Below are positions 455-64,000 of a stretch of 64,000 nucleotides of DNA, one piece after another (position 1 is the stretch's first letter; every line of letters starts with the position of its first letter). The DNA is from Cristatella mucedo (lineage: Eukaryota > Bryozoa > Phylactolaemata > Cristatellidae): the NCBI GenBank assembly GCA_009760855.2, contig WPIO01000337.1, positions 16,942-80,941 of the forward strand. Reading direction: 5' to 3'. The position numbers and the translations under genes are program-made. The notes beneath the pieces are model-generated. The model was not told the origin of the DNA, ran no database searches, and saw nothing but the letters and a program-made list of their open reading frames with translations.

Positions 455-595
455 CTGGAGCTGCTCGATATCAGCTCCAACCACAAGCTCAAAACTCTTC
501 CTCCATCCATATGCCAGCTGCATGCACTGAAGAAGCTGGACGTTTCTAAGTGTGGTCTAAATATATTGCCCGATGACTGGGAAGGCATGAAGGAG
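455..595 (+). CDS. Leucine-rich-repeat exon (two LRRs), probably of a ROCO-type gene
   Basis: The 141-nt exon has an acceptor after a pyrimidine-rich tract (…ATTCTGTAG|CTG) and a donor GAG|GTAAAC. It is phase 0 at both ends and encodes 47 residues without a stop. It reads as two plant-type (23-residue) LRRs: 'LELLDISSNHKLKTLPPSI' then 'LHALKKLDVSKCGLNILP'. LRRs of this type precede the Roc-COR module in ROCO proteins. The next supported ROCO exon, at 22635, is also phase 0 and begins inside an LRR, so this exon could belong to that gene across a transposon-filled intron of about 22 kb. Direct joining would space the LP motifs 21 rather than 23 residues apart, so an intermediate exon, or a different paralogue, is possible. 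Confidence 0.7.
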
Positions 596-9782: not shown

Positions 9783-12532
9783 AACCTACAATCTAGGTTT
9801 ATACATCCTGAGATCGTTAGTAAAAAAGTGAAGGCAAGCCTTAACCTTGATTAAGTCGTGGTAATTCCGAAGTTACTAGGTACGACCTTAAAATGAAACT
9901 CCCAAGGTGGCTGGTAGTTAACTCCCGTAGTAGGAACCAAAATAAAAGCGATTAAGCCGTTTGATAAAAAACTGACAGTATTGATGACATCAATATGGCG
10001 AATGGTATTCTCTATCTCAAAGCTCGATGATTGAGACTAGTAGCAGACATGTCTACTTCTGTAATGATGTAGGTTGCTTTGACTGTGTCCTTTTTATAGT
10101 TTCAGGATTCGTAAAAAGTGTGTTGATTCTATTACCAACATGGTATGGTCTTGCCCAGAAAAAAATGTAGTGATACACAGTGATTGAATCAAGAGTAGGA
10201 AAATGTAGATTCACCTAGCGATGACTACCCAGAGGCTCTCTGGGGCAGTCTGAACTGAACCGTCATTGGCCACAGGCTCGGATTGGTCAGTAGGTGAGCA
10301 AAAGGCTCTGCATGTCTAGACCTACCATTATAAGCCTGGAACCCCAACGAGTATGTGTCTACACTATCCGTAATGGCTCTGACAGTCACTCTGGATTGAG
10401 CAACTGCAGACTGAAGATGGCTCATACGGAAATACATAATAGCTGATGTAATTAAGTTCAAGTAAATATTCGATGATCAAGCCATTATTAGTGAGACTTC
10501 GGAGTGGTAATTTTTTGCAAGCTTGTTGCATTGTAGCTCCTATTAGAATTACAAGTGTTAAGATTAGTCGTTCCATTCAATGACTTTATATTCTGAAAAT
10601 GCTCCTCCTGCGTCTTCTGAGGTTGGCGGTCAATGTCTGTCGGCAAGTACCTGGATGTTATCGTTGTAACATACATTCCTATAGTTCGCGCTTCCGTAAA
10701 AGGATTAAGGTTCTTGTTTCTATACTGCAATAATAGTTCCAGCTTATTATTTGACGGTGCCCAAGCATCAAACCGCACCGCTGATGAGTTTGATGCAGTT
10801 GTATGCATCATTAAATCCTTTCTGCAGTCTTTGTCCCTCTTTTTAGTTGGAGGTGCTGAATATTAGCAACAACTGTCTGAAAGCTTACCCAAACGGTACC
10901 TTGGGCTCGAAGAGTCTTCGATACCTTGACCTTTCAAATTATTACGGGGTAAGAAACTTGGTATGACGTCGTTTAGCTTTACGTCGACGAGATCTTTATT
11001 AGGTTCTCTGTGACGTCTGCACAACATCTCGGCAGCATTATTATAAACCGTGTTGAACGACAAAAAGGCAGCTCACCATCAAAATAGGTCAATATACTTA
11101 GGACCAACTTGCACACGAGACGGGTGCAATGATGTGAAAGTTCAAAAAATCATAAATTCCGACTTTCAAGTTGATCAGTTCACTATTATTTGAGATGTGA
11201 CTTGGTATACCGAGATAGCAAGATACCAAGGGCTGGCATTTCACCCGGTCGTGAAGTTGAGGTCGGTCGTGAATGGTATAGAAGCTTTAGAAAAAAAATT
11301 CTATGTAGCACACAAAATATATGCGAATACTTCTACCTTAATAAACTATTATATTTCATCAACAGAACATTACCACGATAGCTGTCATGTTTGTTAAAGT
11401 GGAATCATAGTCAGACCCTCCAGTCAGACCAGTGTTCGCCAAACAAATCTCAAGCTATGAACATCATAACAACAAATTTTTTAAAACAGCCTCAATTTCC
11501 CCAGAATACAATTGAATTTATACACATTTTCAGATTGATTCTCAGTGAATTATGGGCTAATGCAATCCAAGTCACCAGCTGAGCGACTGACCGTACCGAG
11601 GGTTGCCGATAGTACCTCGTGTCGTGAATGGTGACCACAGGAGCTAAATCAGCAGTCCCAGGATTCCATAGGCGCTGTTATGCTGGACTAAGTTATATTG
11701 ACCCCTGGCGGAATTAATTTATCAATACATAATCCCTAACGACAGTCTAGTTGACAAACAATACTCACTCCAAGTTTGTGAGCTATATTTCTGGCAAGCA
11801 AATGAGGAGTTAGAGCCTGTATAGCCATTTTCCACTGTTGTCCATGAGCTGCTGGCCGTGGCTTGGCCATAGGCGATCGGGCTTAAGCTTTTTCATTGTG
11901 TTATAATTACCTGTGAGACGGTTGACCTCTATTGGACGTGCCATTGTTTTGCATATTGTATGTTTTTCATATTTTAAAGTGATGTTTGCCCGTTCAGAGC
12001 TGAGTCGCTTATATTTACTAATAGTGCACGAAAACAACATTCGGAATCTTATTTTATAAAGAAAATCGTTATATTGAATTTTAATGTTCTACTTTCGTTG
12101 TAAAAAGGTTTATAAAAAAATAACATATCCCGTTCGGGAAGCTTCTTAACCACAAGTCTTTGTTATTAAATTTGCATCTAGTTCGTCTTTAAGAGGAAAT
12201 TTTAAATAACTGAATATTGTTTGGTCATTTTTTGAGTTTCCACCTTAGTAGTACTAGTAGTAGTATAAAAATTTGATTACGACTTCAGGAAACTTAATCC
12301 CTTAATAGTAGGAATTCAGAACAAAGGTCATTTAAAAAAAGCTGTTTACTGTTTCTGTTTTCAAAATCAGCTGCTACCAAGTGATTTTTCTGTTTTGCCA
12401 TAAAAACGTTTGCATTTTTTCACAGTTTTAAAGCAAATACCTTACTGTTCTCATTAATTTTATTGTATATTATCTTTTGTGAAATATTTTAAATCGATAG
12501 AATTGTACTTCTAATAATTATATTTCAAGAAA
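9783..12532. other. No recognised gene in 2.75 kb; several unassigned short frames
   Basis: Frames of 60-107 codons on both strands (for example 10488-10811 minus and 11190-11400 plus) show no recognisable motif and no convincing splice context. The sequence from about 12060 to 12530 is strongly AT-rich. It probably includes decayed transposons that I cannot classify. Confidence 0.4.
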
Positions 12533-15820: not shown

Positions 15821-16105
15821 AGCGACAAAATCTAGATGCCAATCCGTTGCTTGACTGGTAGCCAGTGCAGGTCGGCGAGAAGTGGAGTAATGTGGCAACT
15901 GCGACGCTCACGACAGACAAGCCTAGCTGCGGAGTTTTGCACCAGCTGCAATCGCCTGATGGCCCATGCTGATAGGCCAGTAAGCAGTGAGTTGCAGAAG
16001 TCGAGACAGGGTGTCACGAATGCAGGCACCAATTGGGACGTGGTATCCTTATCTAAACAAGGCTAAATTTTAGCAATGTTATGAAGCTGAAAATAGGCAG
16101 ACCAA
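15821..16105 (-). mobile_element. LINE family A, 5' half of the split copy
   Basis: Continuation of the copy at 14024-14526. The minus frame 15832-16032 contains 'TPCLDFCNSLLTGLSAWAIR', 'LVQNSAARLVCRERRSCHIT' and 'LHWLPVKQRI'. It is truncated at about 16105. Confidence 0.85.
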
Positions 16106-22634: not shown

Positions 22635-24491
22635 GGGATTGACGGACGTGGAAACATGATAACTGAGCTGCCAGATGAAGTTGTTCATACCTCACTGACC
22701 AATCTCTCATTGGAAGGCAATCCAATGGTTCTTCCACCTAGTGCAGTGTGTGACCAGGGAATTGAAGCTATTCGGCAGTACTTCCGAGATAGCACTCAGG
22801 GGAAGGAATCGCTATGCTGTGATACTATCAACATGCTTGGAGACACGGGAGCAGGAAAGACTAGCATCGTTCAGTCGTTACTCTTCGGCCGGCCATCCAC
22901 TGCTGCAGATGACGATAGAACTCGTGTGATAGATCAGAGCCTTGTAAAGATTGCAAATCAGATCATAAATGTGAATGACTTTGGTGGACATGAAATTTAC
23001 CAAACAGTATTTCCAATATTTTTGCCCTCTAAAGGGCTTTGTATCATTGCGTTTGACGTAAGCGAAGAGCTTGTAAAGCAGAAAGAGAAGGTAAAGAAGT
23101 GGCTTATGACAATATTCGCTAAATCAACCGAGATACGAGTTATCGTAGTTGGCACGCATGCTGATCTTCTTGAAGTAGGCCCACTGAAATATGTGGCAAA
23201 AGAGATGGATGAGTACATAACAGAAATTCATCAGTCTGCTCAAAAAGAGCTTACGTCTCACATAAATGGACTTCAGGATTTGGATTCCTCCAAAACTAAC
23301 ATCGAATTCCTCGAAAACTCTTATGCCGTTATAAAAGCCGCTGACATTTCATTCAGAACTATAAGCTGTAAAGAGAGTGGTGATCATGGCCTAGGTGACC
23401 TGATATCCCTAGTCGAGAAGAAACTTAAGGCCGCAGTGCAGTATCCTGCTTCCTGGTGTCGTATTATGAAAGATATAAAGGACCATAAGTCAGAAGACGA
23501 GAACCTACAACCACATTTGGAATGGAAGATTGTCAGAGAAGTGTATGCACGGCACTCGCTGCCAGAACCGGACGACTCCACACTTAAATTTGTCCTTCGA
23601 TCTCTTGTATGGACATCCCAGATTATATGGTTAGAAAGCTCTCCAAATCTTCAACACTTGGTTTTCAATCAACCCCAACGTATTATTTCCTATTTAAAGA
23701 AGGTATTGCACCACGAAAATTTTGAAAAATTTCAAAATGATGACTATTACAGACATAACATTGAGTCATATCGTGGAGGGGCTCTGGATAAACCGTTCTT
23801 TGGTATATTGCTTGACAATCAGCATGTCAAAGTTGTCAGCGATTTTATGCAACATTTTCACATGATTTGCCTCACTTGTCAGGGAATCTACATCTTGACT
23901 TGCAATCTCCCTGTGCAGCCTCCTACTAACCTGCAGAAGTGGCTAACCAATGCAGCTGCAGACCCACCTGTTTGCTGTCACCTGAGCTTCCTGGGGAATT
24001 GCATGCCGCTTGCTTTCTTTCCTACTCACTTGACAGCCGTGTTATCCTGGCTGTTCTCAAATGATGCTGAGCCTGAGTTCTGGAAGGATGGAATACTTGT
24101 CGAACTGCATGGCATACGTACAATAATGAGACGCAAAGTTAGTACCGTGGAATTGCTGGCATTTTCAAGATCGGGTGCAGAGGATGTCTGGAGAGCTTTA
24201 CAGCCATTACTTAAGTGCATACTTGGTAATATAGCTGAGTCGTGGAAAGGTGTTCCGCCGAGCTGCATGCTTGTCTGCCCTAAATCGACGTCGATGGAAA
24301 ACCTACTACCAGTCGTGTCACCTCACGGTCGTAAAGTGAATTGGAATAAACTGATGAATTACGAGCAATCTATGGGGGAGCAACCACATTCAAGCACCTG
24401 GGATTGCAAAAAGTGTCGCTATAGCATACCTGGAATATGGATGTATCTTCATATGCCAGGTATGACCACAAGTTGTCAGTTCTCTCGATAA
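22635..24491 (+). CDS. ROCO protein terminal exon: LRR end, Roc GTPase, COR
   Basis: The acceptor TTTAG is followed in phase 0 by 'GIDGRGNMITELP' and an uninterrupted frame to TAA at 24489. Counting from the Met codon at 22656: the last LRR is about 1-28; the Roc GTPase runs about 55-262 with P-loop GDTGAGKT (62-69), switch II DFGGHE (108-113) and G4 THAD (167-170). COR follows from 'YPASWCRIMKDIK', with 'IIWLESSPNLQHLVFNQPQ', 'VLHHE' and 'MQHFHMICLT'. The tail carries a CxxC pair ('WDCKKC') before 'GIWMYLHMPGMTT', a motif shared by all three copies. ROCO proteins are multidomain GTPases in which COR mediates dimerisation; the MFHAS1/MASL1-like subgroup lacks a kinase, as here. The ATG at 22656 is internal to an LRR, so the true start lies in upstream exons. 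All GTP-binding residues are present. This is the only intact ROCO copy in the window. Confidence 0.9.
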   Translation, partial: GIDGRGNMITELPDEVVHTSLTNLSLEGNPMVLPPSAVCDQGIEAIRQYFRDSTQGKESLCCDTINMLGDTGAGKTSIVQSLLFGRPSTAADDDRTRVIDQSLVKIANQIINVNDFGGHEIYQTVFPIFLPSKGLCIIAFDVSEELVKQKEKVKKWLMTIFAKSTEIRVIVVGTHADLLEVGPLKYVAKEMDEYITEIHQSAQKELTSHINGLQDLDSSKTNIEFLENSYAVIKAADISFRTISCKESGDHGLGDLISLVEKKLKAAVQYPASWCRIMKDIKDHKSEDENLQPHLEWKIVREVYARHSLPEPDDSTLKFVLRSLVWTSQIIWLESSPNLQHLVFNQPQRIISYLKKVLHHENFEKFQNDDYYRHNIESYRGGALDKPFFGILLDNQHVKVVSDFMQHFHMICLTCQGIYILTCNLPVQPPTNLQKWLTNAAADPPVCCHLSFLGNCMPLAFFPTHLTAVLSWLFSNDAEPEFWKDGILVELHGIRTIMRRKVSTVELLAFSRSGAEDVWRALQPLLKCILGNIAESWKGVPPSCMLVCPKSTSMENLLPVVSPHGRKVNWNKLMNYEQSMGEQPHSSTWDCKKCRYSIPGIWMYLHMPGMTTSCQFSR

Positions 24492-25833
24492 TCCTCCTGA
24501 GGTTTGAGGTTATTGAATGCTTAAATCGTAGCTTTGTTGGCCTTGAAGACTTGCAGCTCCCACCGGGATTTTCTTAGGGCTTTCCCACTATGGCTTCCCA
24601 CTTTGACTAATGGTTTGTTGAATTGCCTTAGGCATTACACTTTTGCCTGTCCATTGTCTCTTTTGATTTGGTCTCCGGTTCTAGGTAGGCCTTGTGACTA
24701 CCTTTGGAGCAGGTGCTCATAAAATGCTATTTGTTTAATTTTGACAATAAATTTGGTAAGCTTTGTGCTAGTATTAGTTAATAGGCTTAGCTGTTTACTT
24801 ACCTTTTACAAAACTAATATAACTATAGGAATGCAATACAATTCAATAGCAATATAATACAGCTGTATATCACAATCTATGCGGGCAGTTACTATGAAGT
24901 TGCGTTACCTAATTTCTTATAAAGCTTTAAGATTATTACTGACTGTATTTTGCCAGAACTTAGTATCGTGTTTTTTTTAATTACCATCCAGTTAAATGCC
25001 TTGCCAGATAGTAACATTTTTTTGTTTCGAGCAGGTTTGTATTAGCTAAAACTACACGATGCACATGCACACTCTCACACTCATACACACTCACATACAG
25101 GCATGCACGTAAGCACATATACACATGCACACATACCAATCACACACGGTGCACTTATTATGCTAAATTCAACCCTATCTTTTTCTGGGATCATAGTTAC
25201 CAGTAGTTTAGTTTCTCTACTGAGAAGTGCGCTGTAGCCTTGTAGCTGTAAAAGATCTTATTAAAAAAAAGTTGATTGCCAAGAACTGAAGAGTACTCCT
25301 TTGCTATCATCACAATTCCTTTTAATGTGGCTTACAAAACTCCGTGACTAGGTCACTTAAGGCTGTTATCAAACAATTACCATCTTCTCTTTGAAGGCTC
25401 CTGCTCACAACAACACTTTCGGGATGCAGCCAAATACCTCAAACGGCTAGGTAAGGGCAACCTGTGTAAGGGGCTTGATGATCATAAGGTCATCCTTTGC
25501 AAAGCTTTGCTTCAGCTTTACACAAGTCTATAACTAGTGACTTAGTTTTATCGTCATTCAATTGAGGAGATATTGTTTGCCCGAAAGACTACTTCGACAT
25601 ACATGTCTGGATGAGAAGAGCCTTAGGTAGCTCACTTCACATGTCAATGCTGCAAGAGACATCAGGTAGGGACACTCACAATATTGCTAATAGAAAGTGG
25701 CAATTTCTTAGATTACATTCTTCTGAATGTGAATGATCATTTTATTTTATATGGGATTTGTGTAGTTGGTTAAGTTAAATGCATTGTGCTTGACATAAAC
25801 ACTAATTTAACAAATTTATTTGTGCTGTAAACC
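24492..25833. other. No recognised gene; CA-rich tract at about 25060-25150
   Basis: AT-rich sequence downstream of the ROCO stop. An AATAAA signal occurs near 24746 ('GACAATAAATTTGG'), about 255 bp after the stop, and is a candidate poly(A) signal. An impure CACA-rich tract occupies about 25060-25150. Confidence 0.5.
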
Positions 25834-27408
25834 CTCCACTGCGGCAGCTGACGATAGAACTCGTGTGATAGATCAGAACCTATGCAAAAATTGAAAGTCA
25901 CTTTGTTAATGTGAATGACTTTGGTGGGCATGAGATTTATCAACAGTGGTTCCAATGTCTTTGCCTTCTAAAGGACTTCGCATCGTTGCGATCAACATAA
26001 GTGAAAACCTTGAGCAACACAAGGAACAAGTTAAGAAGTGGCTTATGGCTGTATTTGCTAAAACAACCAAGATACGAGTGATTGTAGTTGGCACGCATTC
26101 TGATCTTGAAGAAAACTATCTCAAAAAGTGGCTCAAGATATGAAGGAGTACGTATACGGAATTCATTTGTCTGCTCAGCGAGAGCTTGAGTTTCACATCA
26201 ATGCACTTGCACTTCAGGATTCCTCCAAAGCATCGAGCATCGAGTTCCTCAACCAATCTCTCCATGTCATAGCGACTGCCGGAATTTCGTTCGTTACGGT
26301 CAGCTGCCTAGGATGGATTCACCATTGCCTAGCTGAGCTGACATCACTAGTCCAGAAGAAACTTAAAGCCATAGTGCAATATCCTGCATCCTGGTGTCGT
26401 ATTATGAAAGAGATAAAGGACTATAAGTCAAACGATGAGAACTCTCCGCCAGATCTTGAATGGCAGCACATCAGACAAGTTTATGCACGGCACCTGGAGC
26501 CGGAGCCGATCGACTTCCCACTATAAGCTATTCGCTTCGATCTGTCGTGTGGACATCCTAGTTTGCATGGTTAGAGAGCTCTTAGTCCCTTGAAGACTTT
26601 GTATTCTATCAACCACAGCAAATTAATAATGATTTAGAGAAGGTATTGCATCACGAATATTCTGAAAGTCTTCAAAACCATCATGGCGTTCTGCATTACG
26701 AATTTAGTGTGCAGGCATAATGTCTAGGCATTAGGGATCGATATTTTTTGCGATATTTCTGGGAATAGACACATCTAAGTGGTCAGTTATTTTGAGCCGC
26801 AGTAGCACACGGTTGCACTGATCGATCATGGCAACTACATATTGACTCATAATCTCCGTGATCAGCCACCTTCAATGCTGCAGGTGTGGCCAAACGCAAC
26901 GGCTGAAGATCCCTTGCATCTTGGCTTCCTGTGAGATTGTATGCCACTTGCTTTCTTTCCAACTAACCTGTCCTCAGTTTTTTCCTGGGTTTACTCGATT
27001 AATGCTGAGCCGAACTTTTGGAAGGATGGAAAACCGCATGGTGTACCTGCCATCATGAGACGAAACAAGAGCAACTTGGACTAGATATCATTTTAAAAAT
27101 CGGGAAGAATAGAATCAGGAGAGATTTACAATCATTGCTTGACTATATCCTTAATATTGTGGCAAGATCATGGTGCTCTGCTGAAATGCAAGGCTGTCTT
27201 CCTGGGATTGGGAGACCTGGGGAGCCTATAGCCAAGTGTGCAAGCACACGGTCGTATTGTGACTTGGGATACACTGGAGAGAGATGGGCAATCTAGAACT
27301 GAGCCATGGCATTCGAGTACCGGGAATTGCAAAAGGTGTGGCCATAGCATACCGTCAATGTGGATATATCTACGACAGGCAGGTAGGACGACTGGTTTTA
27401 GGTCTTGA
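25834..27408 (+). pseudogene. Second ROCO copy, decayed and lacking the P-loop
   Basis: Homology to the exon at 22635 starts abruptly at 'CCACTGCGGCAGCTGACGAT', which corresponds to about residue 81 of that protein. The LRR and P-loop are therefore absent. The 'GTGAATGACTTTGGTGGGCA' switch II region is present but in a frame broken by small indels. A frame at 26128-26526 preserves the late Roc and early COR ('LQDSSKASSIEFLNQSLHVI', 'YPASWCRIMKEIKDYKSND') and ends at a TAA. Further pieces continue to 27297, and the conserved tail reappears as 'NCKRCGHSIPSMWIYL' before a TGA at 27406. Multiple frameshifts and stops make this a pseudogene of the tandem neighbour. Confidence 0.85.
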
Positions 27409-27887
27409 CGATGTGAGCTTTTAAGTTAGCTGAAGTTTAAAACGTGGCTTAGTCAACCTTGAAGATTTGTAATGCATCTTGGGATTGTTTAGGGGTTCTA
27501 CTCTACCCTAGTTTTCCTAATGGGTTGAAATGCAGCATCTGTCGTGGGTATTAAGTTTTAGTATCTCTATTGTCTATTCTGATTCGGTGTCTAGTTATAA
27601 ATATGCACTTCAATTACCTTTTGATTAGATTGCAATTAGAACTGGTGCTCAAGTGATGCTTTTGGCTTGGCCTTTAAACTCAGAATCTTTCATGTGTACC
27701 TCAATAGTGTGCTCTCAGCGGTTTTCTGCCGTTGAGCAGACTGTAAAATAATTCACTGCTGGAGACTCAGGGATCGTCATACTCGGATGGCCTAAATGCT
27801 TCAGCAGTATTAGCATTCTAGGCTGGTTTGCTTAGCAGCATCCTGCCTGGCCTGCTTAAGCACTGTCTCTGTCAGTCTGTCTGTCTC

Positions 27888-27945
<58 letters not shown>

Positions 27946-28327
27946 CTTTGAAGACCTATGCAGCCTGCTGTTTTTGCATAGCAGGTCCATCATGTTAGGC
28001 TACTAAGTTTGTGCCTGCAGCCTAGTGACCCTCAGACCGATCTGATTAGACTTCTCAGGCGGCTTGAATGCATTCAGCTGTAACTATTCAGACCTACTTA
28101 CACAGCTCATGCCAGATAAAGACTCCAACATCTCCACAGCTTGATACTGACTTGGTGTCTCGAGTTGATGTGTTTTGGTCCTGGCTTTGGTTTAATGATT
28201 TGTCATGAAAGTGGCCTGTTTTAGCTGTCGAAGCCGGTAATGGCAGTGCTTTTAGTCGCAGCCTGGAAGGCCTATCAGGCCCTCTTACAGAAGGAGCTGA
28301 AATTGAATTTCACGCAATTTCACAAAA
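27409..28327. other. Non-coding stretch with a (TC)n microsatellite
   Basis: No gene recognised. A CT/TC dinucleotide run spans about 27880-27942. Confidence 0.6.
27880..27942. repeat. (TC)n microsatellite
   Basis: A nearly pure TC run preceded by TGTC units. Confidence 0.95.
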
Positions 28328-28349
28328 ATGACCATCCGAGTTGTATCAG
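28328..28349 (+). CDS. Candidate first coding exon of the CARD gene
   Basis: An ATG in an A-rich context (CACAAAAATGA) opens seven codons and ends at a good donor TCAG|GTCAGC in phase 1. That is exactly the phase needed by the exon at 28871. This is inferred from phase and splice signals only; the exon is too short to carry homology. The region just downstream (28370-28460) reads as an LRR-like 'ELPDEML…LHELPSSFEKM', which may be an unrelated LRR remnant. Confidence 0.25.
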
Positions 28350-28870
28350 GTCAGCAAGGTTGCTGCTGAACTTCCAGATGAAATGCTTGTAATGCCTACG
28401 GAAGTAATGGCAGGGAAGCTGCATGAACTACCAAGTAGTTTTGAGAAAATGTTTTTAGTGTTAGGTGTGGCATCATCACTCTTAACGTTCAGTTTAACTT
28501 CGGACTCTCTTTTAAAATACTAGTAGGAAAGTATTTTGTATCATTTTAGACCACCTTATTCCTATTAAGTCGGCTAGCTGGCCTCAAGGCTGTCATGTCA
28601 GTTTAAAGCAATACGAATAACCTGGAACCTCGAGTTCGTAGTGCCTATTCATGAAGTTAAGTAGTTTATGGGCCTCGAAGTTGATCTTTGTTTCGAAGTA
28701 AATAAGTACTGTCTTTGGTTACGGCTCACTGTGTGCACTTCACTCAGGACTACTTAAATGTCGAGATGTTGATGAGTAACATGACTATCGAGGGAGGTCA
28801 CTGGAGACTTCAAAATACTGCCATCCCCGATGATCATGTCAGGCCTCACGAAGTTTCCTTGTTTTTTTAG

Positions 28871-28987
28871 ACAATGAGACTGTCAGGGGTAATCAGGCGC
28901 CCGGTCGCAAAAGAGACAATGTGACAAAGGACCGAGTTCTCAGTGCAGAAAGGTGTCAATTATTGGCTTCTAGTGTGTCTCTGACAG
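28871..28987 (+). CDS. Candidate linker exon of the CARD gene
   Basis: It follows a strong pyrimidine tract and acceptor (CTTGTTTTTTTAG|AC). It is open for 38 codons and ends at a weaker donor ACAG|GTGGTT. Phase is 1 at both ends. The peptide is polar and basic ('NETVRGNQAPGRKRDNVTKD') with no domain recognised. Phase agrees with the upstream candidate and with the exon at 29938. The call is inference; a different donor is possible. Confidence 0.4.
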
Positions 28988-29107
28988 GTGGTTGTGTCAT
29001 GACTGAATAATTGGCTAGCCCTAGTGTTTCGTTTGATATCTATGGTAATACCAGAATTTTGAAATACACATTAACACCTTCTAAAATATTGAAAGCTTTG
29101 TGCAAGT

Positions 29108-29378
29108 GTGACTTTGCCTTCATGCACTTCATTCAGTAATTGGTCCCAGTGATTCGTCCTTTATGTGCTTATCCACGGTGACACTATTGCATGCTGCCAC
29201 TAACCACAATTGCATGCTGACCCTATGCATGTCACCCCTAACCATAATATTCATGTTGTTTATCAAGCATGATGTTTCCACTCGCCATTCGATCGGTTTT
29301 CCTTTGCATCAAATGTAAAGCGCCTTGAAAGAGATTGTGCTCTCTGATTGTGCATTATCAAGTGTATCATTATTATGC
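29108..29378 (+). mobile_element. LINE family A 3' end
   Basis: Plus strand: 'CCCAGTGATTCGTCCTT', 'GCATGCTGCCACTAACCAC', 'ATGTCACCCCTAACCAT', then the hairpin region and a short ATT tail near 29366-29376. Intronic relative to the CARD gene model. Confidence 0.9.
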
Positions 29379-29937
29379 ACGACCATCATATATAACTTCT
29401 GGTCCCCAAATATTGATCCGGGATTTTTACGAGCTTGTCTGCAAGCTGGAGCTGATCTTGAATGTTGCCAGTGCCACCATTTTCTCTCCCCCTCCAGATC
29501 TTTCCATCCTCCTCACATGTCCCTTCCTCCTCTTCTTGCTGCTGCAGTTGTATCGTTTAGGGCGTTTTCACATTTGATGGAACTGGTGGCTGCCAAAGGT
29601 ACACCAACTGCTGCAGGACCATGCCAATACTCTGAGGAATTTTTCGGTGTTTAGGTTCTTAATAAAATACGTGAAGACGTAGAATGTCGTGACATCTGTC
29701 AGGAGTTATTACCTTGCAGATTTTAGGTCTCAGCTACAGATGCACCTAGTGGGGTCAGGTTTGCCTTTGCCTCAGACAACATCTCTTTTTGTTTTGCTCT
29801 GTATTGCTTACCTACATGTGTATGAGTCAGCTCACTTAGAAGTCCAAACTCTCTTCCGTTTGATGCAGCTAACTTACTTTGCCCTTTCTCTTTAAAGTGA
29901 TGCGATTGTTTGATTCGTTGTGCTTTCTTTTTTTCAG
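29379..29937 (+). other. Intron of the CARD gene model with an unassigned 109-codon frame
   Basis: A plus frame at 29325-29654 contains 'FLRACLQAGADLE' and 'PPLLAAAVVSFRAFSHLMEL', which is faintly ankyrin-like but lacks the TPLH core. I do not call a domain. The intron ends in a very good pyrimidine tract. Confidence 0.3.
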
Positions 29938-30027
29938 GTAATGAGGGCAAACCTTCTGCCCTACTGCTTGGTGCCAGCAGCGACCTACCAGCTTCATTGG
30001 TAGCACCTAAGAAGAGGTCATGGGAAG
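29938..30027 (+). CDS. Linker exon of the CARD gene
   Basis: Both splice sites are strong (CTTTCTTTTTTTCAG|GT at the left, GAAG|GTAAGC at the right). The 90-nt exon is open and phase 1 at both ends. The peptide 'NEGKPSALLLGASSDLPASL' followed by a 'PKKRSWE' basic patch has no recognised domain. The single leftover G plus the AT that opens the exon at 33580 makes an in-frame Asp codon, linking it to the CARD. Confidence 0.6.
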
Positions 30028-30225
30028 GTAAGCTTGGTGAGCCGTGAAGGCACACTGGGGAGGATGGTTGGATTTTACGAGCTTTTTTATAGCCTAATGA
30101 GGTGGTACTCAGCCTGCCCGTAGCCCGGGCGGAGAGTTGTGAGTCCAGGTGGGGCAGAGCACTGTGGGCAGAGTCACGCCCACAACATCGCCATCTTCGT
30201 CATTTCGAACTCGCGATTTGAATAT

Positions 30226-30362
30226 ATAAATTTCTCTATAATAACACTAATAATACGGCACTTGGTAAGGCACACTCAGAGAACTCACTTTTTTCTATGT
30301 GCTTTACATTTGCTGCACAGGGAAACATGATTGAATAGTGAGTAATAGCACTAGTCAACAAT
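30226..30362 (-). mobile_element. LINE family A 3' tip
   Basis: Minus strand: short AT tail, decayed hairpin 'CACTTGGTAAGGCACACTCA' and the 'TTTGCTGCA' / 'GAATAGTGAGTAATA' blocks. Confidence 0.8.
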
Positions 30363-31054
30363 GGCCACTGCTAGTCGTGCCTAATCTTGAAACGATGGCC
30401 ACTTCTCAAATCTAAATGCTTGGTAAATAGCTTGTAACTTTTCATAATCGATCAGCTCGTTTAATCCATATTTGTGACTTAGCATGAAGAAAATGCTAAT
30501 AATTGCTCCGACTACTAGAAGCAGTGCTATTTTTCTGTAAAGCTTGCTTCTTTACGACTTTATGATCTCTTAAATGCTAACTACAAGGCACAAGCCCCTT
30601 GAAACAAAGCAGGGGCAGCACAAACCAATCGGTTTCTATAGTGGATTCTAGCCAATTTCGAGCACCTTGGGTGACCAGTGAGGATGTAATAGTGTATTTC
30701 TTTATATAAGCACCGTTTGATACATGAGCCGAGGATGTTGTTTTATCTCTATGATTGGAGCCTAGCAGCATAGCTGGGCTTCTTATAAGCTCTAAATTAT
30801 TACTTAACAAAATGCTAACTGCCCCTTAGCGTCTGCTCGCTTTCGCAGTTTGCTTGTCATCGGAAATATAGCGAGTCCTTAAAGGTGATCACTATTCGCG
30901 ACACATGGAGAGGATCCGAGTCCAGTCTTAAACGATTCTGTATTGTCCACTTTGAGTGGTTGAGATAGCAGTTAAGCCTCTTTCGGTTCCATATAAATGT
31001 GGCCGTTTAATCAGTTGAACTTATTTCTGAAGCTCAATTTGCATCTGTCTTTCA

Positions 31055-31181
31055 ATGACCGGAAATGAGTATGTCACTCTGCTATCTGTCTTGCTATTAA
31101 TTATCAGCTGCTTGACTGTGCAGTTTGCTGGCAGTAGTCTAATTATGCAGTCAATGCGACCTGGGGAACGCTGCCCAGGTA
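31055..31181 (+). CDS. Signal-peptide exon of a possible secreted or membrane protein
   Basis: An ATG at 31055 opens a frame with a typical signal peptide: a short polar start, then 'YVTLLSVLLLIISCLTVQFA'. It continues to 'MRPGERCP' and a strong donor CCAG|GTAAGC in phase 1. After the donor only the TG repeat is translated, so the exon end is well placed. The phase fits the exon beginning at 31506 (giving CP-A-I-P-P) and equally the CARD exon at 33580. It lies within the 30028-33579 intron of the CARD model, on the same strand, so it is either a nested gene or an alternative first exon. Confidence 0.55.
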
Positions 31182-31232
31182 AGCAGCGATTTCTGCTTAC
31201 GTTTGATTGGCATTTAGTTTGTGTGCTTATGT

Positions 31233-31309
<77 letters not shown>
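31233..31309. repeat. (TG)n microsatellite
   Basis: An uninterrupted TG dinucleotide run of about 38 units just inside the intron following the signal-peptide exon. Frames through it on both strands are artefacts. Confidence 0.97.
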
Positions 31310-31310
<1 letters not shown>

Positions 31311-31505
31311 AAGCGTGCACAAGCTCACTCGGGCGTGCTTGGGCTTGCTTGAGTTGTTATCTATTTGTCCTAAACTACTACTTGATAGATAAAGCCTATT
31401 GCTGCACCCTGCCATTTTTCAGTATTGGCCATGTCGTTCTCATGATTAGGTGTTGGAAGTGTTAGGTACATTTCAACACACCTGACGTTTTTTTCGTGGT
31501 TTTAG

Positions 31506-32035
31506 CCATCCCCCCCAAATACCTTAACGGGGACTGCTCAGTGCAATGTCACGGTGACTATTTCTATATGGCCCCTGGGTCAAAGCCCAGTGAAAAGATG
31601 CTCATTTTCACGACCCAGGTCGTACCTTCTTCTGGGAGGTCACGATTTACCTAAACGGAAATCTGCATCGCCCAGCTTTATAATAGAAGTAGTAATAACT
31701 CTACGTGGAATCTATTGCACCCTAGTTCAACTAAATCTTAATCCCGACGATTTAAAGCTCCCTGCTACCTTAAGTAATGAATGACATGCATTCAGGCTAT
31801 CTTGCCTAAGAAAACCTGCCAAAAAGAAAACAATGAACCTGTCCTTGTTCAAGTTATAATGCGGCCGCTCAAACTAATGAATGTGACACGTCTGCCATCT
31901 GTAGTCTCTAGCTATTACTTTATCAGTGCCCGGTTCTCATCCGGTCGCCAGTATTTATGTGAATGTCCCACCTCCCTACGTGTCGAAGAATCGATTGAAG
32001 CTGGCGGGCCATATACTTGCACCATCGAGGGTTAA
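31506..32035 (+). pseudogene. CCP/sushi-like extracellular exon followed by frame-broken coding remnants
   Basis: After the acceptor GTGGTTTTAG the frame reads 'IPPKYLNGDCSVQCHGDYFY' and continues to a TAA near 31650. Joined in phase to the preceding exon it gives a Cys-Pro-x-Ile-Pro-Pro…Asn-Gly…Cys…Cys-x-Gly pattern like the first half of a complement-control (sushi) module. Downstream, other frames stay open and protein-like: 31640-31784, and 31830-32035 with 'FSSGRQYLCECPTSLRVEES' ending in a stop. This suggests a longer ORF broken by frameshifts, or short exons whose borders I cannot fix. Confidence 0.4.
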
Positions 32036-32529
32036 GTAGCTAGGATAAGGCTACTAATATTCTGAGCTAATTAGTCTATGCCGTCACGCTAGCCAATCTA
32101 ACTATCGACCAGCTGTCATGCTTGCTGTCAATTGGCTTCAAGCTGGTCAAGGTCGCCCTTCTGTGCATCCTACCGGCTAGCTGGCTGCTCTTGCTGCAGC
32201 TCCCCAGGGGGCACTGCTCTCCCATGCACAGATCCTGCTGGCTTGCCGTTTGTAGGTGTTGGCTTTCCTCTACCTAGCATTATATGTGCCGAGAATTTTG
32301 CCATGCTTGCAATATGATACTAAGGACATGCAGACGCATTCATATAGCATGGGCAAGCGATCAGAGCATGTATTCAGGACCTTCTCTCCAAGAAACAACT
32401 GTCTTGCAGAAGCACAGCTTGAGTAAACCATCAACTTAAGCATTCGGCCAAATGTCGGCAAGCAGCTTCTCGTGTTAACCATGTGACACATGGTAGATCA
32501 AGGTTATTTGATATTGGCAATAATACGTC
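32036..32529. other. No recognised feature
   Basis: Non-coding, no motif recognised. Confidence 0.45.
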
Positions 32530-33115
32530 AGTATATCGCCCTCAAAGAAAGTAATCTCTTTCTAGGCAATTTACGTGTGCTGCAAAGGTAGCAAAATCGA
32601 ATGGTTAGTGGCAGCGCTCTCAATGTCATTTTGCCTAACATAGGTAGAGGTAACATGCACAGGGTCACCACCCAAAAATGGTTAGTGGCAGCACTCTCAA
32701 TGTCAACATGCATAACATAGGTAGAGGTGACATGCACAGGGTCACCATGCAAAAATGTTTAGAGGCAGCATGCATAGTAGAAGCACCCATAAGCACCCAA
32801 AGCAAGAATCTTGAGGAACCAATAAATGCTGTGATAATCAGATGCGTGCTATGGTTTAATGGCATCAAGTCCGAAGATGCAGTAATGCCAGTAGGGAGTG
32901 AATACCGGGTTTTGGAAGCATGCAAACTAAGTGCAGGGTCTCCGAAGAATTTTAGGTCTTCAGGAGGTTGACTACACTATTTGATTCGGAGAAGTTGGTG
33001 GTATGAATCCAATCATGGCGGTGGATTAGGTCTGATATATGATTTGGAGTGAGGGAATGGAGTGGTCTACAAGTGACTTACAGAACCACGAAATCTATGC
33101 CCTGCTGAACAGTGC
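32530..33115 (-). mobile_element. LINE family A with a 77-bp tandem duplication in its 3' UTR
   Basis: Minus strand: hairpin remnant at 32538-32575, 3' UTR and RT C-terminal traces to about 33115. The unit starting 'GGTTAGTGGCAGC' at 32603 is repeated at 32680 with few differences. Confidence 0.8.
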
Positions 33116-33579
33116 AAGCCTGGGAGATGTTTGTTTCGCGATACACATATTTCTCATCATTGCGAGGATGGCAGACACTGTAGACTGCATGTGACCGGCA
33201 TGTGATAAGTTAGAAGAATTCGGTAACAGAATGCATGCTTCTGGCATTTATTTCTGTACTGTGGTTTGAAAGCCTGTGTTTCCTTCACTTTAGTTCATAA
33301 TTAGATGAATCGGTATGTGTTACATCGTAAAAAATGTAATATAATTCTTCCCACTGCAGCTAGTTACCAGTAGCTATTATTAAGGATTACAGAACAGCTT
33401 GGCTAATCTTAGAGTTGAACCACCAGAGAAAAATAGGTTGGATCGACAGAGAATAATGACTCACCTACAAATGGGTTCACGTTGACGAAAACCAATTTGT
33501 TGACTGCGATAGTGCCCCTTGTATTAAACTTTCCAACCGCGTTTAAAGGTGACTGACGGCTTTCGTTCTTTGTTTGCAG
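33116..33579. other. End of the intron before the CARD exons
   Basis: Non-coding; finishes with a strong pyrimidine tract and CAG acceptor at 33579. Confidence 0.5.
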
Positions 33580-33761
33580 ATGATGATTCTGCTCGACCGG
33601 AATGCTCGGCTGAAAGCAGCAAGCGAAGTGACCTGAGAAGGCGATTCAAAAAAGCTAGGACCATGTTGATTGCAGAGTTAGATACATCGGTCGTTCTTCA
33701 GGCTCTAGACATTCTCTATGGTGATGAACTCGTTACGGAGGCTCAAAAGCAAAATATTCAG
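33580..33761 (+). CDS. CARD domain exon, N-terminal half
   Basis: Acceptor CTTTGTTTGCAG|AT and donor TTCAG|GTAAGC are both strong; start phase 1, end phase 0. After a Ser/Asp-rich lead ('DDSARPECSAESSKRSDLRR') the peptide has the opening helices of a CARD (caspase-recruitment) domain: 'FKKARTMLIAELDTSVVLQA' with the LxxELD pattern, then 'DELVTEAQKQNI', equivalent to the 'vLTeeq.e.I' turn. The second half is in the next exon. CARDs assemble signalling complexes by CARD-CARD contacts in the cytosol, in apoptosis and innate immunity. Confidence 0.7.
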
Positions 33762-34902
33762 GTAAGCTGTCAAGAAAGTGTCGTGTGCCGATCTGAGACG
33801 GAAAAATGCTAATATCTGATATAGCCACCACGTCTATCTGGTATCTGAACAGCCTTATCAGTTAACTAGCAGCTGCAGCTAAATAACTTGCCTGCTCTTC
33901 CCTCGAACATTTAGCCGGTCTTGTAGGTAGTGCATCATAATTAGCCTACAACAAGTAGCTTTTTAAACCTTTTTTCTTGCCAGCTACAAACCATTGACTT
34001 TATTCCTTGCTGTTTTAGGTATTAAAAACCATAATTTCTTTCCACTTTTATTTCGAAGTGTGTGCTAATATTTCTCGCCTGCCTGTATAATGAGGCATTG
34101 TAAGGTGCACCCTTACTTATGCTTGTGCTGCTTAGAATACACGTTTTGCTTTTACGAAGGGAGAGGTTACGATAATGTCTTTAGATGTCTACATTTAGAC
34201 CCTGACATTTGCATGATGACTTAATTGTCATAATGGAGTCGTAGCAGTAGTTAAGCTTCATATTGCTTACATGAAAAGTAAAAATCCTGCCAATGATTTA
34301 GCTGTGGCTGCTAGCCGGATCTGGTACAATCCAAGATCATTCAAATGTGCGATTCATTTGTATACGTTTTTCCCTAAACTTGAACTGGCAGTGGTAAAAT
34401 GCGATGCAGTATTGCTGGTTCGAACAGATCTCGTTGCTTATAAATAAATAGATAATGTCTGGCCAGGGAAGCAGAAAACTATTTTTGGTGAGCTTAACAT
34501 TATTCAAGTTGTACGCGGTGCATGCTAAATCAAGTTTCGCTTCTTCGTGAAGTGGACCGATTACAGTAAAAATGGTATTATGAGAGTAACGATTTATTCA
34601 TAAAAGTTGAACATCTTAGTTTCGCGGTTATAATTTTCTTACAGTTACCGCTCAGCATTCCGTTGAAAAATGCAAGTGAGCTAGTGACTGCAGATGGCTA
34701 CCGATTTGAGAGTTAGTGATAAAAAACAAAAGTTTAAAGCCATAAGCTTAGACAGCAATGACCCCTGGCTCGCCGCCTGTTCTACATTGCTAATGATGAA
34801 CCCATGTGTGGAACTTTATTGATTAAACTATTGCGAATTGTATTAAGCAATGTGACAACTTATCCTGCTCTATGAACAAATGTAGGAGTCTACTGTTTTT
34901 AG
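33762..34902 (+). other. Intron splitting the CARD domain
   Basis: GTAAGC…TTTTTAG borders. No transposon or ORF recognised inside. Confidence 0.65.
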
Positions 34903-35073
34903 GCAGAGGCGAAGAGAAATGTTCAAATAGATACCGCAAGGTGCTTTGTCGACGTCATTGAGTCTCTTGGAGACGATGCGATCCTGGCTTTTGTTGCGTC
35001 TCTGGAGTCTAAATTCATCGAAAGACCAGATCTGGCTCAAGCTCTCAGGAATTACGGTTGTCATAGATTCTGA
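34903..35073 (+). CDS. CARD domain exon, C-terminal half, with stop
   Basis: Acceptor CTACTGTTTTTAG|GC, phase 0, matching the donor at 33762. The frame completes the domain: 'IDTARCFVDVIESLGDDAIL' (helices 3-4 with the conserved Gly between them) then 'FVASLESKFIERPDLAQALR' (helices 5-6), and ends 12 codons later at TGA (35071). The CARD is therefore at the C-terminus. The whole predicted protein from the first candidate exon is about 190 residues with no other recognised domain. No catalytic residues are expected. Confidence in the fold is good by pattern, but no profile search was run. Confidence 0.7.
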   Translation, partial: AEAKRNVQIDTARCFVDVIESLGDDAILAFVASLESKFIERPDLAQALRNYGCHRF

Positions 35074-35479
35074 CTTTGATCACCTAGCTCGGACGCTAGC
35101 TGTGTCAGCTCACTAATCTGCCCCATTCATCATCAGATGCCAGGATTGTGAATGCATTTTTGTTAAGTTCATGAAGGCGCTTTTGCATTTTACTTTAGCT
35201 TGCTTGTTGGGATTCGGAATCTGCGGCCGTTAAATTTCACACTAAAAGGTAATATTCTTGTGTGCTTCTTAATAACTGCATTTTTATCGAGGCCCCGACC
35301 AACAATATAATTAAATGTAAATGAATGTTGCAGTGGTTGCACAAGAAACATAGTGGCCGTTGATTAAACCGCTTCAGTTCAAGGATCAACAAATAAAACC
35401 TTGGTCAATTTTCTAGAATGGCCTTTTGTGCAGAAATTTGCTTCTCTTATATGTGCCATATATTGAGGGGGGAAGTTGG
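35074..35479. other. 3' flank of the CARD gene
   Basis: Non-coding. An AATAAA occurs near 35392 ('CAACAAATAAAACC'), about 320 bp after the stop, and is a candidate poly(A) signal. Confidence 0.45.
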
Positions 35480-36405
35480 AAATGATAATAATAATAAATA
35501 TAATGCACGTGATAAAGCCCCGTCAGAGAACTCAATCTCTTTCTAGGCGCTTTACATTTGCTGCAAAGGGAAAGCTATTGAATGGTGAGTAATATCATGC
35601 TTGATAAACTACGTGAATAACATGGTTAGGGGTGGCATGCACAGTGTCAGCGTGCAAGTGTGGATAGTTGCAGCTTGCTGTGTCGGCACGCATAAGTACT
35701 TTAAGGACAAATCAGAGGGACCCACTAAATGCTGTCCTAAATAGGTGTGTTTTTAAGTTCTTTTTTAATGTGGTCAAGTCAGTCAAGTCCTGAAGCAGCT
35801 CGGGAGGGAGTTTCAGGTTTTGGGAGCATACAAACTAAATGCACGGTCTCCAAAGGATTTGAGGTTTGTACGGGGTATTTGTAAACTGTTGGATTCCGTA
35901 AAGTGGGTGGTACTATGCTTGGCCTGATGGGGGAGTATATCTGAGAGATATGTTGGAGCCAAAGAATGAAGTGACCTAAAAGTGAGCGATAAATTCTTGA
36001 AGTCAATTCGTTCTTTGACTGGTAGCCAGTGCAGATCGGCGACAAGTGGAATAATGTGGCAACTGCGACGCTCACGACAGACAAGCCTAGCTGCCGAGTT
36101 TTGCACCAGCTGCAATCGCCTGATCGCATATGCTGGCTGGCCAGTAAGCAGTGAGTTGCAGAAGTCGAGACGAGATGTCACGAATGCACGGACGTGGTCT
36201 CCTTATCTAAACTAGCCCGAATTTTAGCAATATTATGAAGCTGAAAATAGGCAGATTTGACTGTGGAGCTGATATGGTCGTCTATCAAGAGGTCACTTTG
36301 GACCATGACTCCTAGATTTCGAACCGATTCAACTGCAGATATGCTGGAAGAGTCAATTTTGAGCGTCAGCCTTTCCAATTTCTATATCACACTGGGTTTG
36401 CCCAT
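35480..36405 (-). mobile_element. LINE family A, relatively complete C-terminal half
   Basis: Minus strand: ATT tail at 35484-35500, hairpin, 3' UTR. RT region in frames 35813-36181 and 36178-36378 joined by a frameshift, covering 'SISAVESVRNLGVMVQSDLL', 'DDHISSTVKSAYFQLHNIAK', 'TSRLDFCNSLLTGQPAYAIR' and the C-terminus. It keeps the segment deleted in the copy at 5851-6795. Confidence 0.9.
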
Positions 36406-62114: not shown

Positions 62115-63739
62115 CTAACGATGTACGGTCATACCTGGCGGTTGTAGATACATCCACATCGCAGGTATTTTGCATCGGCCGCACTTGTCGCAATACCAGG
62201 TTCTTGAATGTCGTGGCTCAGCTCTACTTTTCCCGTTATTCGTCAGTTTATTCCAAGCCACTGGGCAGCAAGGAATTTAAAGGTCTCCAGACTTCATTCT
62301 TGCCAGCTGTTGAAAATGCCACCAATTCCAAAGCACTCTTGTGGTGTCTCATTATTATAGATACAAAATCCACTTCGACTAGTACACCATCCTTCCAAAA
62401 CGTTGGCTCAGCCTTTCTCGAGCACAGCCAGGATAACACTGCGGCCAGGTTTGTTGGAAAAAAAGCGAGTGGCATGTAATTTCCCAAGAAGCTGAGCCGC
62501 AAGCAAACAGGAGGATCTTTAGCGGCCTTGTTTAGCCACTCCTGCAGCCTACAATGGGGCTGCTCAAGGAGATTACCAGTCAAGATGTAAGATTCCTTAG
62601 AAGTCTTGGTGATCATGTGAAAATGTTGCATAAAATTGCTGACGGCATCGACATGGCCACTTTCCAGCAATTGTGCAAAGAAATTTCTATCAAGATGCCC
62701 TTGCCGATAATTTTCCATATAAGATTCGTAATAGCCGTCCTTTTCACGACTTTCGGAATATTCGTGATGCAATACCTTCTTTAAATCGTGAACAATTTCT
62801 TGAGGTTGATGGAATACCAAGTGTGTAAGAGACGAAGAGCTCTCTAGCCATATAATCTGGGATGTAGATACGAGAATTTTAAGTATAGCTTTCAGTTTGA
62901 AGTCGTCCGGCTCCAAGTGCTGTGCATACACTTGTCTGACCTGCTCCCATTCCAAATACGGTCGATAGTTGTCATCGTCTGACTTAAGGCCCTTTATTTC
63001 TTTCATAATATGACACCATGATGCAGGATATGGCTCCGGGGCCTTTAGTTTATTCTTGATTAGTGATTTCAACTCACCTAAGCGATTTTTACCTCCGTAT
63101 TTGCAGCTCACCGTTGTGACTGGAATGTCAGCAGTTTTTATAGCATCACGATACTGTTCGAAGAGGTCGACGTTAGTTTTGGAGGAATCCGAACTTGATT
63201 TAAGTGCTATTATGTGAAGTGTAAGCTCTTCTTCAGCAGACTGCTGAATTTCTTTTACGTACTTATCCATCTCTTCTTCCACAACCTTTAGTTGGCCTGG
63301 TTCAACAAGAAGATCGGAATGCGTGCCAACTATAATAACTCGTATCTCTGTTGATTTAGCAAATATCGTCATAAGCCACTTGTTTACCTGCTCCTTCTGC
63401 TTCTTAAGCGTTTTGACTAACGTCGAACGCAATTATGCAAAGTCCATTGGAAGGCAAAAATATTGGAACCACTGTTTGATAAATTTCATGTCCACCAAAG
63501 TCATTCACATTTATGATCTGATCTTCAAACTTTACAAGTCTCTGATCTATCACACGAGTTCTATCGTCAGCTGCAGCAGTGGATGGCCGGCCGATGAGTA
63601 GCGACTGAACGATGCTAGTCTTTCCTGCTCCCCTGTCTCCGAGCATGTTGATAGTATCACTGCATAGCGATTCCTTCCCCTGACTGCTATCTCGGAAGTA
63701 CTGCCGAATAGTTTCAATTCCCTGCTCACACACTGCACT
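62115..63739 (-). pseudogene. Third ROCO copy (Roc-COR), inverted, with two frame lesions and no LRR
   Basis: Minus strand. The first frame (63404-63754) holds 'TINMLGDRGAGKTSIVQSLL' (P-loop intact) and 'NDFGGHEIY', then meets a stop after 'FDVSQNA'. One extra base near an AAAA run (about 63411-63416) shifts the frame. The second frame (62248-63432) continues with G4 'GTHSDL', COR ('YPASWCHIMKEIK', 'IIWLESSSSLTHLVFHQPQ', 'FMQHFHMI') and stops after 'LLPSGLE'. A deletion of roughly 100 bp relative to 22635-24491 has shifted the frame there. Beyond it the conserved tail is readable in another frame as 'WYCDKCGRCKIPAMWMYL' to a TAG at 62115. The LRR end and splice acceptor are missing. The A-run frameshift could be a sequencing error; the C-terminal deletion cannot. 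Confidence 0.88.
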
Positions 63740-64000
63740 AGGTGGAAAAACCATACCTGACTGGAGATACTTAATTACTAATTACATTGTTGTTTAAACT
63801 AATTAAATTACATAAAACCAAGGTTTTACAAGTAGACGGCATACATTCTCTCAAGCAAAAAACAGCATTCAAGAGGGAATATAAAATCCGTGTTAGCAGA
63901 GACCAATAAACTGTTATTAGTTTAGGCAAGAAAGTCTGTTCTTCCTTACGCCATGAGGCTATTGCCGCTCCTCCAAGCGACTCAAAAGGCTCTAGTTTTC
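63740..64000 (-). other. Right arm of the inverted duplication (intron of the third ROCO copy)
   Basis: The reverse complement matches 22191-22441 with about a dozen differences by eye, for example 'GAAAACTAGAGCCTTTTGAG' at both outer ends. The window stops inside the match, so the arm continues beyond 64000. Confidence 0.9.

What the first reader, a model, noticed from the sequence alone, without database searches (positions are those of the whole stretch)
28328..35073. A CARD protein assembled from phase-matched exons beside ROCO genes
The two exons at 33580 and 34903 join in phase and read as a complete CARD, split by an intron after helix 2-3. Upstream, three candidate exons are all phase 1 to phase 1 and fit the chain. 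Adjacent genes for a Roc-COR GTPase and a CARD adaptor, on the same strand, suggest a signalling pair or the remains of a ROCO-CARD fusion. This is the strongest candidate here for an undescribed innate-immune arrangement.
Basis: partly seen in the sequence, partly recalled or inferred. Interest (0 to 1): 0.8.

Follow-up and report, generated by a model that had tools for sequence, protein, structure and literature searches.

The report
Candidate LRR-ROCO-CARD immune sensor gene
The "CARD gene" and the neighbouring GTPase gene look like one animal gene, a predicted LRR-GTPase-CARD protein whose relatives in the same genome carry rows of similar, in-frame leucine-rich-repeat exons, a layout that could make a varied set of intracellular danger sensors but has not been tested by RNA.

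Summary
The split CARD is real: exons 33580-33761 and 34903-35073 join in phase and pass Pfam's cut-off (31.9 vs 23.9 bits). The gene boundary given is wrong. The CARD is best read as the 3' end of the ROCO gene beside it. The three window ROCO copies and 7 of 7 forward-strand full-length paralogs inspected end at one phase-1 donor. Link exon 29938-30027 and the CARD exons follow in phase. That order recurs: 27 of 31 CARD-exon places on ROCO-bearing contigs are same-strand downstream. In C107 the intron runs straight from ROCO to link, so window 25498-29842, with a dead ROCO copy and the proposed 28328 start, is extra. LRR exons 455-595 and 10847-10948 fit upstream. Six exons give 836 codons with LRR, Roc and CARD. 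Similar LRR exons form same-strand rows before ROCO exons (87 of 99 on ROCO contigs; 40 of 150 read, all phase 0-0). ROCO+CARD is reported for Trichoplax, LRR-exon arrays for brown-algal ROCOs; my paper searches listed no combination. Constraint on this CARD is weak (dN/dS 0.59); expression untested.

The parts
455..595 (+). LRR exon, 141 nt, phase 0-0, two LRRs
   Evidence: exon scan; 150 related exon places in the genome. An LRR-exon profile that includes this exon scores it 100 bits and finds no other in the window
10847..10948 (+). second LRR exon, 102 nt, phase 0-0, probable adaptor to the ROCO exon
   Evidence: exon scan (score 10.2) and collinear 81% identical DNA with an equivalent 0-0 exon at C107:352162-352263. 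A higher-scoring 0-0 candidate at 21791-22099 (17.2) was set aside: its homologs at C107 and C276 have indels and 2 in-frame stops
22635..24459 (+). ROCO copy 1: large exon (phase 0 in, phase 1 out): last LRR, Roc GTPase, COR-like region; open over 608 codons
   Evidence: Roc 50.8 bits; LRRK1/LRRK2 profile matches; donor shared with copies 2 and 3 and forward-strand paralogs
25498..29842 (+). segment in the ROCO-link intron that C107 lacks (insertion here or deletion there); holds dead ROCO copy 2 and the proposed 28328 start
   Evidence: window 24744-25497 and 29843-30623 match L040 409-1392 and 1410-2228
25799..27396 (+). ROCO copy 2, broken by stops and frame changes, 5' part not matched
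   Evidence: tblastn; stops inside
29938..30027 (+). link exon, 90 nt, phase 1-1
33580..33761 (+). CARD exon 1, phase 1 in, 0 out
33762..34902 (+). intron inside the CARD, GT...AG
34903..35073 (+). CARD exon 2 with stop TGA
35392..35397 (+). AATAAA, possible poly(A) signal
   Evidence: motif match only
62127..63754 (-). ROCO copy 3, broken: start of the exon missing and two frame changes; keeps the same donor motif

Best explanation
One gene, on the + strand and spanning at least 455-35073, encodes a cytosolic LRR-Roc-COR-CARD protein. The LRR part is built from symmetric phase 0-0 exons that can be added, lost or skipped without breaking the frame. One large exon encodes the end of the LRRs, the Roc GTPase and COR. 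A phase 1-1 link exon and a two-exon CARD close the protein. Likely working (inferred, not shown): the LRRs sense a ligand or damaged self, the Roc-COR GTPase acts as switch and dimeriser, and the C-terminal CARD nucleates CARD-CARD assembly with CARD-caspases of the same animal (two such genes read, L001 and L002), leading to cell death or inflammation. Differences in LRR exon number and sequence between paralogs, and possibly alternative splicing, would give different specificities. Shown: exon phases, conserved order, domain matches. Inferred: splicing itself, location, function, partners, ligand.
For: CARD exons join in phase and pass Pfam's cut-off. The three ROCO copies here and 7 of 7 forward-strand full-length open paralogs inspected (L009, L011-L014, L016, L019) end at the same phase-1 donor, so the ROCO exon is probably not the last (minus-strand copies were not inspected there). 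Link exons (12 places: 11 same strand downstream of the nearest ROCO, 1 same strand upstream) and CARD exons (37 places; of 31 on ROCO contigs 27 same strand downstream, 2 same strand upstream, 2 opposite) follow the ROCO exon. The intron 3' of copy 1 is collinear with that 3' of the C107 ROCO up to and through the link and CARD exons. A divergent locus, C274 (ROCO 54% identical, CARD exons 33-38%), has the same order and CARD phases. Six exons give one 836-codon ORF with LRR_8 41.7, Roc 49.8 and CARD 27.4 bits, all above cut-off. LRR exons: of 99 on ROCO contigs 87 same strand upstream, 12 same strand downstream, none opposite.
Against: No transcript evidence. The window's CARD shows only weak constraint (12 synonymous, 25 non-synonymous changes vs C276, dN/dS 0.59); the link exon vs C107 has 1 and 7. 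Sister copies look damaged: a stop in C245 CARD exon 1, and a frame change in C107 CARD exon 2 seen as split matches. The window acceptor of CARD exon 2 is weak. With two CARD queries only 12 of 36 merged ROCO loci have a CARD-exon place downstream on the same strand; 24 have none, and 6 of 36 have both LRR exons upstream and CARD downstream. No link or CARD was found in 20 kb read downstream of C193 and of C128, nor in 8.8 kb to the contig end after C256, though C128 has both further on. Several CARD and link places are 21-123 kb from the nearest ROCO, and 6 of 37 CARD places lie on contigs without ROCO. COR is only weakly matched (COR-A in 4 of 8 members). C107, C245, C276 and C214 are near-identical and not independent.
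Confidence: 0.72

Rival explanations
1. The locus is an ageing copy: the exon structure is that of a ROCO-CARD gene, but this member is no longer expressed or selected, like copies 2 and 3 and some sister loci.
For: dN/dS of the CARD 0.59 and of ROCO vs C193 0.61; 4.3 kb extra segment with a dead ROCO copy in the intron; sister copies carry stops or frame changes; only one array-type LRR exon in the window and two more listed on C263.
Against: All six exons are open in one frame; Roc motifs G1, G3 and G4 are present; exon identity to C107/C276 is above that of flanks, little on the 3' side (CARD1 162/182 vs 142/186 and 172/199; link 82/90 vs 115/196 and 176/200; CARD2 133/150 vs 106/178 and 168/198).
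Confidence: 0.25
2. Two genes: a ROCO GTPase and a separate CARD adaptor with its own promoter and first exon between 24.5 and 29.9 kb.
For: Some link or CARD places stand far from any ROCO match (C107:400589/406894 and its copies) or on contigs without one (C131, C173, C624). Short ATG-to-donor frames exist (best 25641-25665, score 7.4), and a looser scan lists 28350-28464.
Against: The ROCO exon ends in a conserved donor and needs a phase-1 acceptor; the link exon supplies one and needs a phase-1 donor. Order and strand recur at several loci. The first-exon candidates lie in the segment absent from C107.
Confidence: 0.12
3. The CARD tail belonged to ROCO copy 2 and is now orphaned; copy 1 has lost its own tail.
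For: Copy 2 is the nearer ROCO and keeps a donor motif.
Against: Intron sequence directly 3' of copy 1 (24744-25497) matches that directly 3' of the C107 ROCO, which continues into the link exon with 17 bases between the matches; copy 2 lies in the extra segment.
Confidence: 0.07

Closest known systems
ROCO proteins with CARD or death domains in Trichoplax adhaerens (PMC4104024; passages seen)
   Same: Roc-COR with a CARD named among the accompanying domains; [quoted passage not shown]
   Different: Exon layout, LRR exon arrays and CARD position are not in the passages seen; no sequence comparison could be made here
Brown-algal LRR-ROC-COR genes with shuffled LRR exons (PMC11378527; abstract and three sections read)
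   Same: LRR exons in symmetric tandem arrays with Roc-COR; proposed diverse immune receptors
   Different: There one 23-aa LRR per 72-bp phase-2 exon, no CARD mentioned, alternative splicing and positive selection reported; here two LRRs per 141-nt phase-0 exon, a C-terminal CARD, splicing unknown, selection only suggestive
Human NLRP genes (PMC6642158; abstract in listing and passages seen)
   Same: Exons encode two LRRs each, a modular layout that permits exon skipping
   Different: LRRs of 28 and 29 aa; NACHT ATPase instead of Roc-COR and LRRs at the C-terminal end (recalled)
DAPK1, LRRK1/2, MFHAS1 (recalled; LRRK1/2 structures matched)
   Same: Roc-COR core; LRRK1 matched over LRR-Roc-COR columns 8-468
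   Different: No kinase or ankyrin match in the six exons; CARD in place of DAPK1's death domain
Aplysia ROCO proteins with TIR domains (PMC9334734; passages seen)
   Same: Animal ROCO joined to an innate-immune signalling domain
   Different: TIR instead of CARD

Membership tests
ROCO | Roc GTPase domain | tested here: met
   PF08477 50.8 bits, cut-off 27; matched in 8 of 8 members of A2; G1 GDTGAGKT, G3 DFGG, G4 THAD (motif names recalled)
ROCO | COR domain directly after Roc | tested here: inconclusive
   COR-A weak in 4 of 8 members, not in the window's own, and 24.1 bits vs cut-off 35.3 in copy 3; the A2 profile aligns to LRRK1 over 8-468
CARD (PF00619) | Pfam score above gathering cut-off | tested here: met
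   31.9 bits alone, 27.4 in the 836-aa chain, cut-off 23.9
CARD (PF00619) | six-helix bundle | not tested
NLR | NACHT domain | tested here: not met
   no NACHT match at E 0.01 in the 836-aa chain; N-terminal exons not seen
Brown-algal-type LRR-exon ROCO | LRRs on symmetric exons in tandem arrays before Roc-COR | tested here: met
   150 scored exon places, 87 of 99 on ROCO contigs upstream same strand; 40 of 150 read, all 40 fit 0-0
Brown-algal-type LRR-exon ROCO | 72-bp phase-2 exon with one LRR | tested here: not met
   141 nt in 37 of 40 exons read, phase 0, two LRRs
LRRK/DAPK | protein kinase domain | tested here: not met
   no kinase match in the six exons; exons before 455 not seen

The most novel reading that the evidence does not exclude
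An animal has evolved, independently of brown algae, a ROCO-based receptor family in which tandem arrays of in-frame double-LRR exons are drawn on by alternative splicing or recombination to make many cytosolic sensors, each with a CARD trigger for caspases: a Dscam-like repertoire coupled to cell death.
Probability: 0.3. Interest if true: 0.88.

Novelty: new variant of a known kind. Interest (0 to 1): 0.6.

Why it matters
If right, an animal genome holds a family of non-NLR intracellular sensors that pair LRR cassettes with a Roc-COR switch and a CARD. It would be a second case of LRR-exon arrays on ROCO genes besides brown algae, and it would make testable whether animals without adaptive immunity diversify cytosolic receptors by exon number or splicing.

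Tried and rejected
Rejected: a gene start at 28328 (score 2.6, in a segment absent from C107). Rejected: a 0-0 exon at 21791-22099. It scores higher (17.2) than the accepted LRR exon 10847-10948 (10.2), but its homologs at C107 and C276 have indels and 2 in-frame stops. Weak: positive selection on the LRR concave face. pN/pS at nine positions that I chose was 1.80 (C107 array, 11 exons), 1.74 (C173, 9) and 0.76 (C237, 14) against 0.47, 0.55 and 0.75 elsewhere; random position sets reached the observed ratio in 320, 418 and 2846 of 5000, so this is suggestive in two arrays and absent in one. Led nowhere: C624 upstream sequence (no ROCO seen by eye in long frames); bacterial-code tRNA scan (none); NACHT count for the genome (not completed). 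Paper searches (capped listings of an open-licence library) listed no paper on animal ROCO genes with LRR-exon arrays and CARD. Passages only were seen of PMC4104024, PMC8195603, PMC9334734, PMC12909245, PMC6642158 and PMC6321704. The species was not identified; 'animal' rests on CARD-caspase genes in the same assembly.

Rows dropped before the count: 7 of 23 rows and 7 of 33 rows, all with E above 0.05. The LRR search scored 150 of 206 candidates; 40 of the 150 were read, and 3 of these 40 gave odd lengths (108, 129, 129 nt) with poorer splice scores. The splice matrices are generic ones of mine, not trained on this species.
Full report
Setting. The window is 64 kb of a eukaryotic assembly (G000, 572 Mb, 688 contigs; window = C263:16942-80941). 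Two single-exon genes elsewhere in it carry a CARD and a caspase domain (L001: 51.2 and 139.7 bits; L002: 49.4 and 155.9 bits), so I take it for an animal. The species was not identified.

The CARD. Exons 33580-33761 and 34903-35073 join in phase and end in TGA. The joined 116 residues score 31.9 bits to PF00619 (cut-off 23.9) over profile positions 2-84 of 85; exon 1 alone gives 13.9 bits and exon 2 no match. The best PDB sequence matches are ICEBERG and caspase-9 CARDs, but not significant (E 0.058 and above). The intron position, with compatible phases (1, 0, stop), recurs at C276, C214, C274 and C624, and the joined C276, C274 and C624 CARDs pass the cut-off with 36.8, 28.8 and 26.4 bits. 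The finding is therefore more than chance.

The ROCO sequences. The window has three copies. Copy 1 (22635-24491, +) is open; its Roc scores 50.8 bits. Copy 2 (25799-27396, +) and copy 3 (63754-62127, -) are broken. Alignments of the copies stop at one point, at or just after a motif CCAG|GTATGA (copies 1 and 3) or GCAG|GTAGGA (copy 2). Seven of seven forward-strand full-length open paralogs inspected end likewise in CCAG|GTATG or CCAG|GTACG, as do three partial ones (L020, L023, L025); minus-strand copies were not inspected at that end. This is a conserved phase-1 donor, so the ROCO exon very probably has a following exon. A profile of eight ROCO exons matches LRRK2 Roc (50 bits) and LRRK1 across LRR-Roc-COR; Pfam COR-A itself is weak, in 4 of 8.

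From ROCO to CARD. In 24470-33575 one phase 1-1 exon position (29938-30027, two alternative donors) passed strict splice thresholds, beside one weak 2-1 candidate, and none on the reverse strand; a looser scan lists further candidates, among them 28350-28464. Downstream of paralog C107 the link exon (76% identical protein) and CARD exon 1 (75%) lie in the same order and strand. A DNA search gives 12 link exons in the genome, and protein searches 37 distinct CARD-exon places after dropping rows with E above 0.05. Of the 31 places on contigs with a ROCO, 27 are same strand and downstream of the nearest ROCO, 2 same strand upstream and 2 opposite; 6 of 37 lie on contigs without a ROCO match. Of 12 link exons 11 are same strand downstream and 1 same strand upstream. 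Seen from the ROCO side, 12 of 36 merged ROCO loci have a CARD place downstream on the same strand, 18 have LRR exons upstream, and 6 have both; two CARD queries will miss divergent tails. C107, C245, C276 and C214 are near-identical and count as one event, as may C274 and C150. C274 is a divergent instance. CARD places lie 5 to 123 kb from the nearest ROCO, so the far ones may belong to other genes.

Whose tail is it? Window 24744-25497, just 3' of copy 1, matches C107 just 3' of its ROCO (L040 409-1392), and window 29843-30623, with the link exon, matches L040 1410-2228. In C107 only 17 bases separate the two. So 25498-29842, which contains dead copy 2 and the proposed 28328 start, is extra sequence inside copy 1's intron (or was lost from C107). 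The tail belongs to the copy 1 locus.

Upstream. A 141-nt LRR exon lies at 455-595. Searching it against the genome gives 150 scored places out of 206 candidates, in rows on contigs such as C237 (16 upstream of its ROCO) and C107 (11), and on C173, where no ROCO was found. Of 99 places on ROCO contigs 87 are same strand upstream, 12 same strand downstream and none opposite. I read 40 of the 150; the best open exon in all 40 is phase 0-0, and 37 are exactly 141 nt. A second LRR exon at 10847-10948 is collinear with C107:352162-352263. A stronger-scoring frame at 21791-22099 is not kept open at C107 and C276 and was left out. The exons 455-595, 10847-10948, 22635-24459, 29938-30027, 33580-33761 and 34903-35073 translate as 836 residues with one stop at the end, and Pfam finds LRR, Roc and CARD above cut-off in that chain. 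The N-terminus was not found.

Selection. Nei-Gojobori dN/dS is 0.59 for the joined CARD vs C276 (12 synonymous, 25 non-synonymous), with 1 and 7 changes for the link vs C107; for ROCO copy 1 it is 0.61 vs C193, 0.64-0.65 vs C167 and C128, 0.39 vs C107, 0.44 vs C256 and 0.26-0.29 vs four more distant copies, and 1.26 between C193 and C128. This is fast evolution with weak constraint at this locus. LRR concave-face positions are more replaced in two arrays but not in the third, and position shuffles do not make it firm.

Known and new. ROCO proteins with CARD and death domains are mentioned for Trichoplax (PMC4104024, passages). LRR exon arrays on ROCO genes are known in brown algae, with one 72-bp phase-2 exon per LRR (PMC11378527). 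Exons with two LRRs and modular splicing are known for human NLRP genes (PMC6642158, passages). Aplysia has ROCO proteins with TIR domains (PMC9334734, passages). My searches listed no paper that combines LRR-exon arrays, Roc-COR and CARD in an animal; the library lacks most subscription papers. I rate it a new variant of a known kind.

Mechanism. From established knowledge of CARD and Roc-COR proteins I infer an LRR sensor, a GTPase switch and CARD-driven assembly with CARD-caspases. None of these steps is shown here.

Noticed in passing
L001:1438-3021, L002:1378-2853 (C111, C518): Single-exon genes with CARD plus caspase domain, possible partners of the ROCO CARD.
   Followed up: partly
L003, L004 (C44, C376): Two further single-exon CARD matches, one with repeats that look like LRRs after the CARD; rich in single-residue runs.
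   Followed up: no
C624:888670-892789 and L097: CARD split by the same intron on a 2.2 Mb contig without a ROCO match; upstream another stretch that looks by eye like a CARD C-terminal half.
   Followed up: partly
62127-63754 (-): Copy 3 is 87% identical to copy 1 in residues 31-144 and 60% after, with a frame change at the border: possible gene conversion or chimera.
   Followed up: no
C107, C245, C276, C214: Near-identical ROCO-link-CARD loci with different lesions; recent duplicates or unmerged haplotypes.
   Followed up: no
C131 (31685, 102985, 175100, 227425, -): Four CARD exon 2-like matches about 52-72 kb apart, no ROCO match on the contig.
   Followed up: no
5855-6510, 14024-15576, 15821-16101, 35481-36255, 50926-51294 and others: Dispersed repeat family, about 75-95% identical among copies, one directly after the CARD gene.
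   Followed up: no
C193 vs C128 ROCO exons (L009, L011): dN/dS of 1.26 between two open ROCO exons.
   Followed up: no
21741-22140 and L017 (C239): Intron sequence upstream of ROCO copy 1 is 96.8% identical to that of the C239 copy, far closer than to the other copies, a sign of recent exchange or duplication.
   Followed up: no
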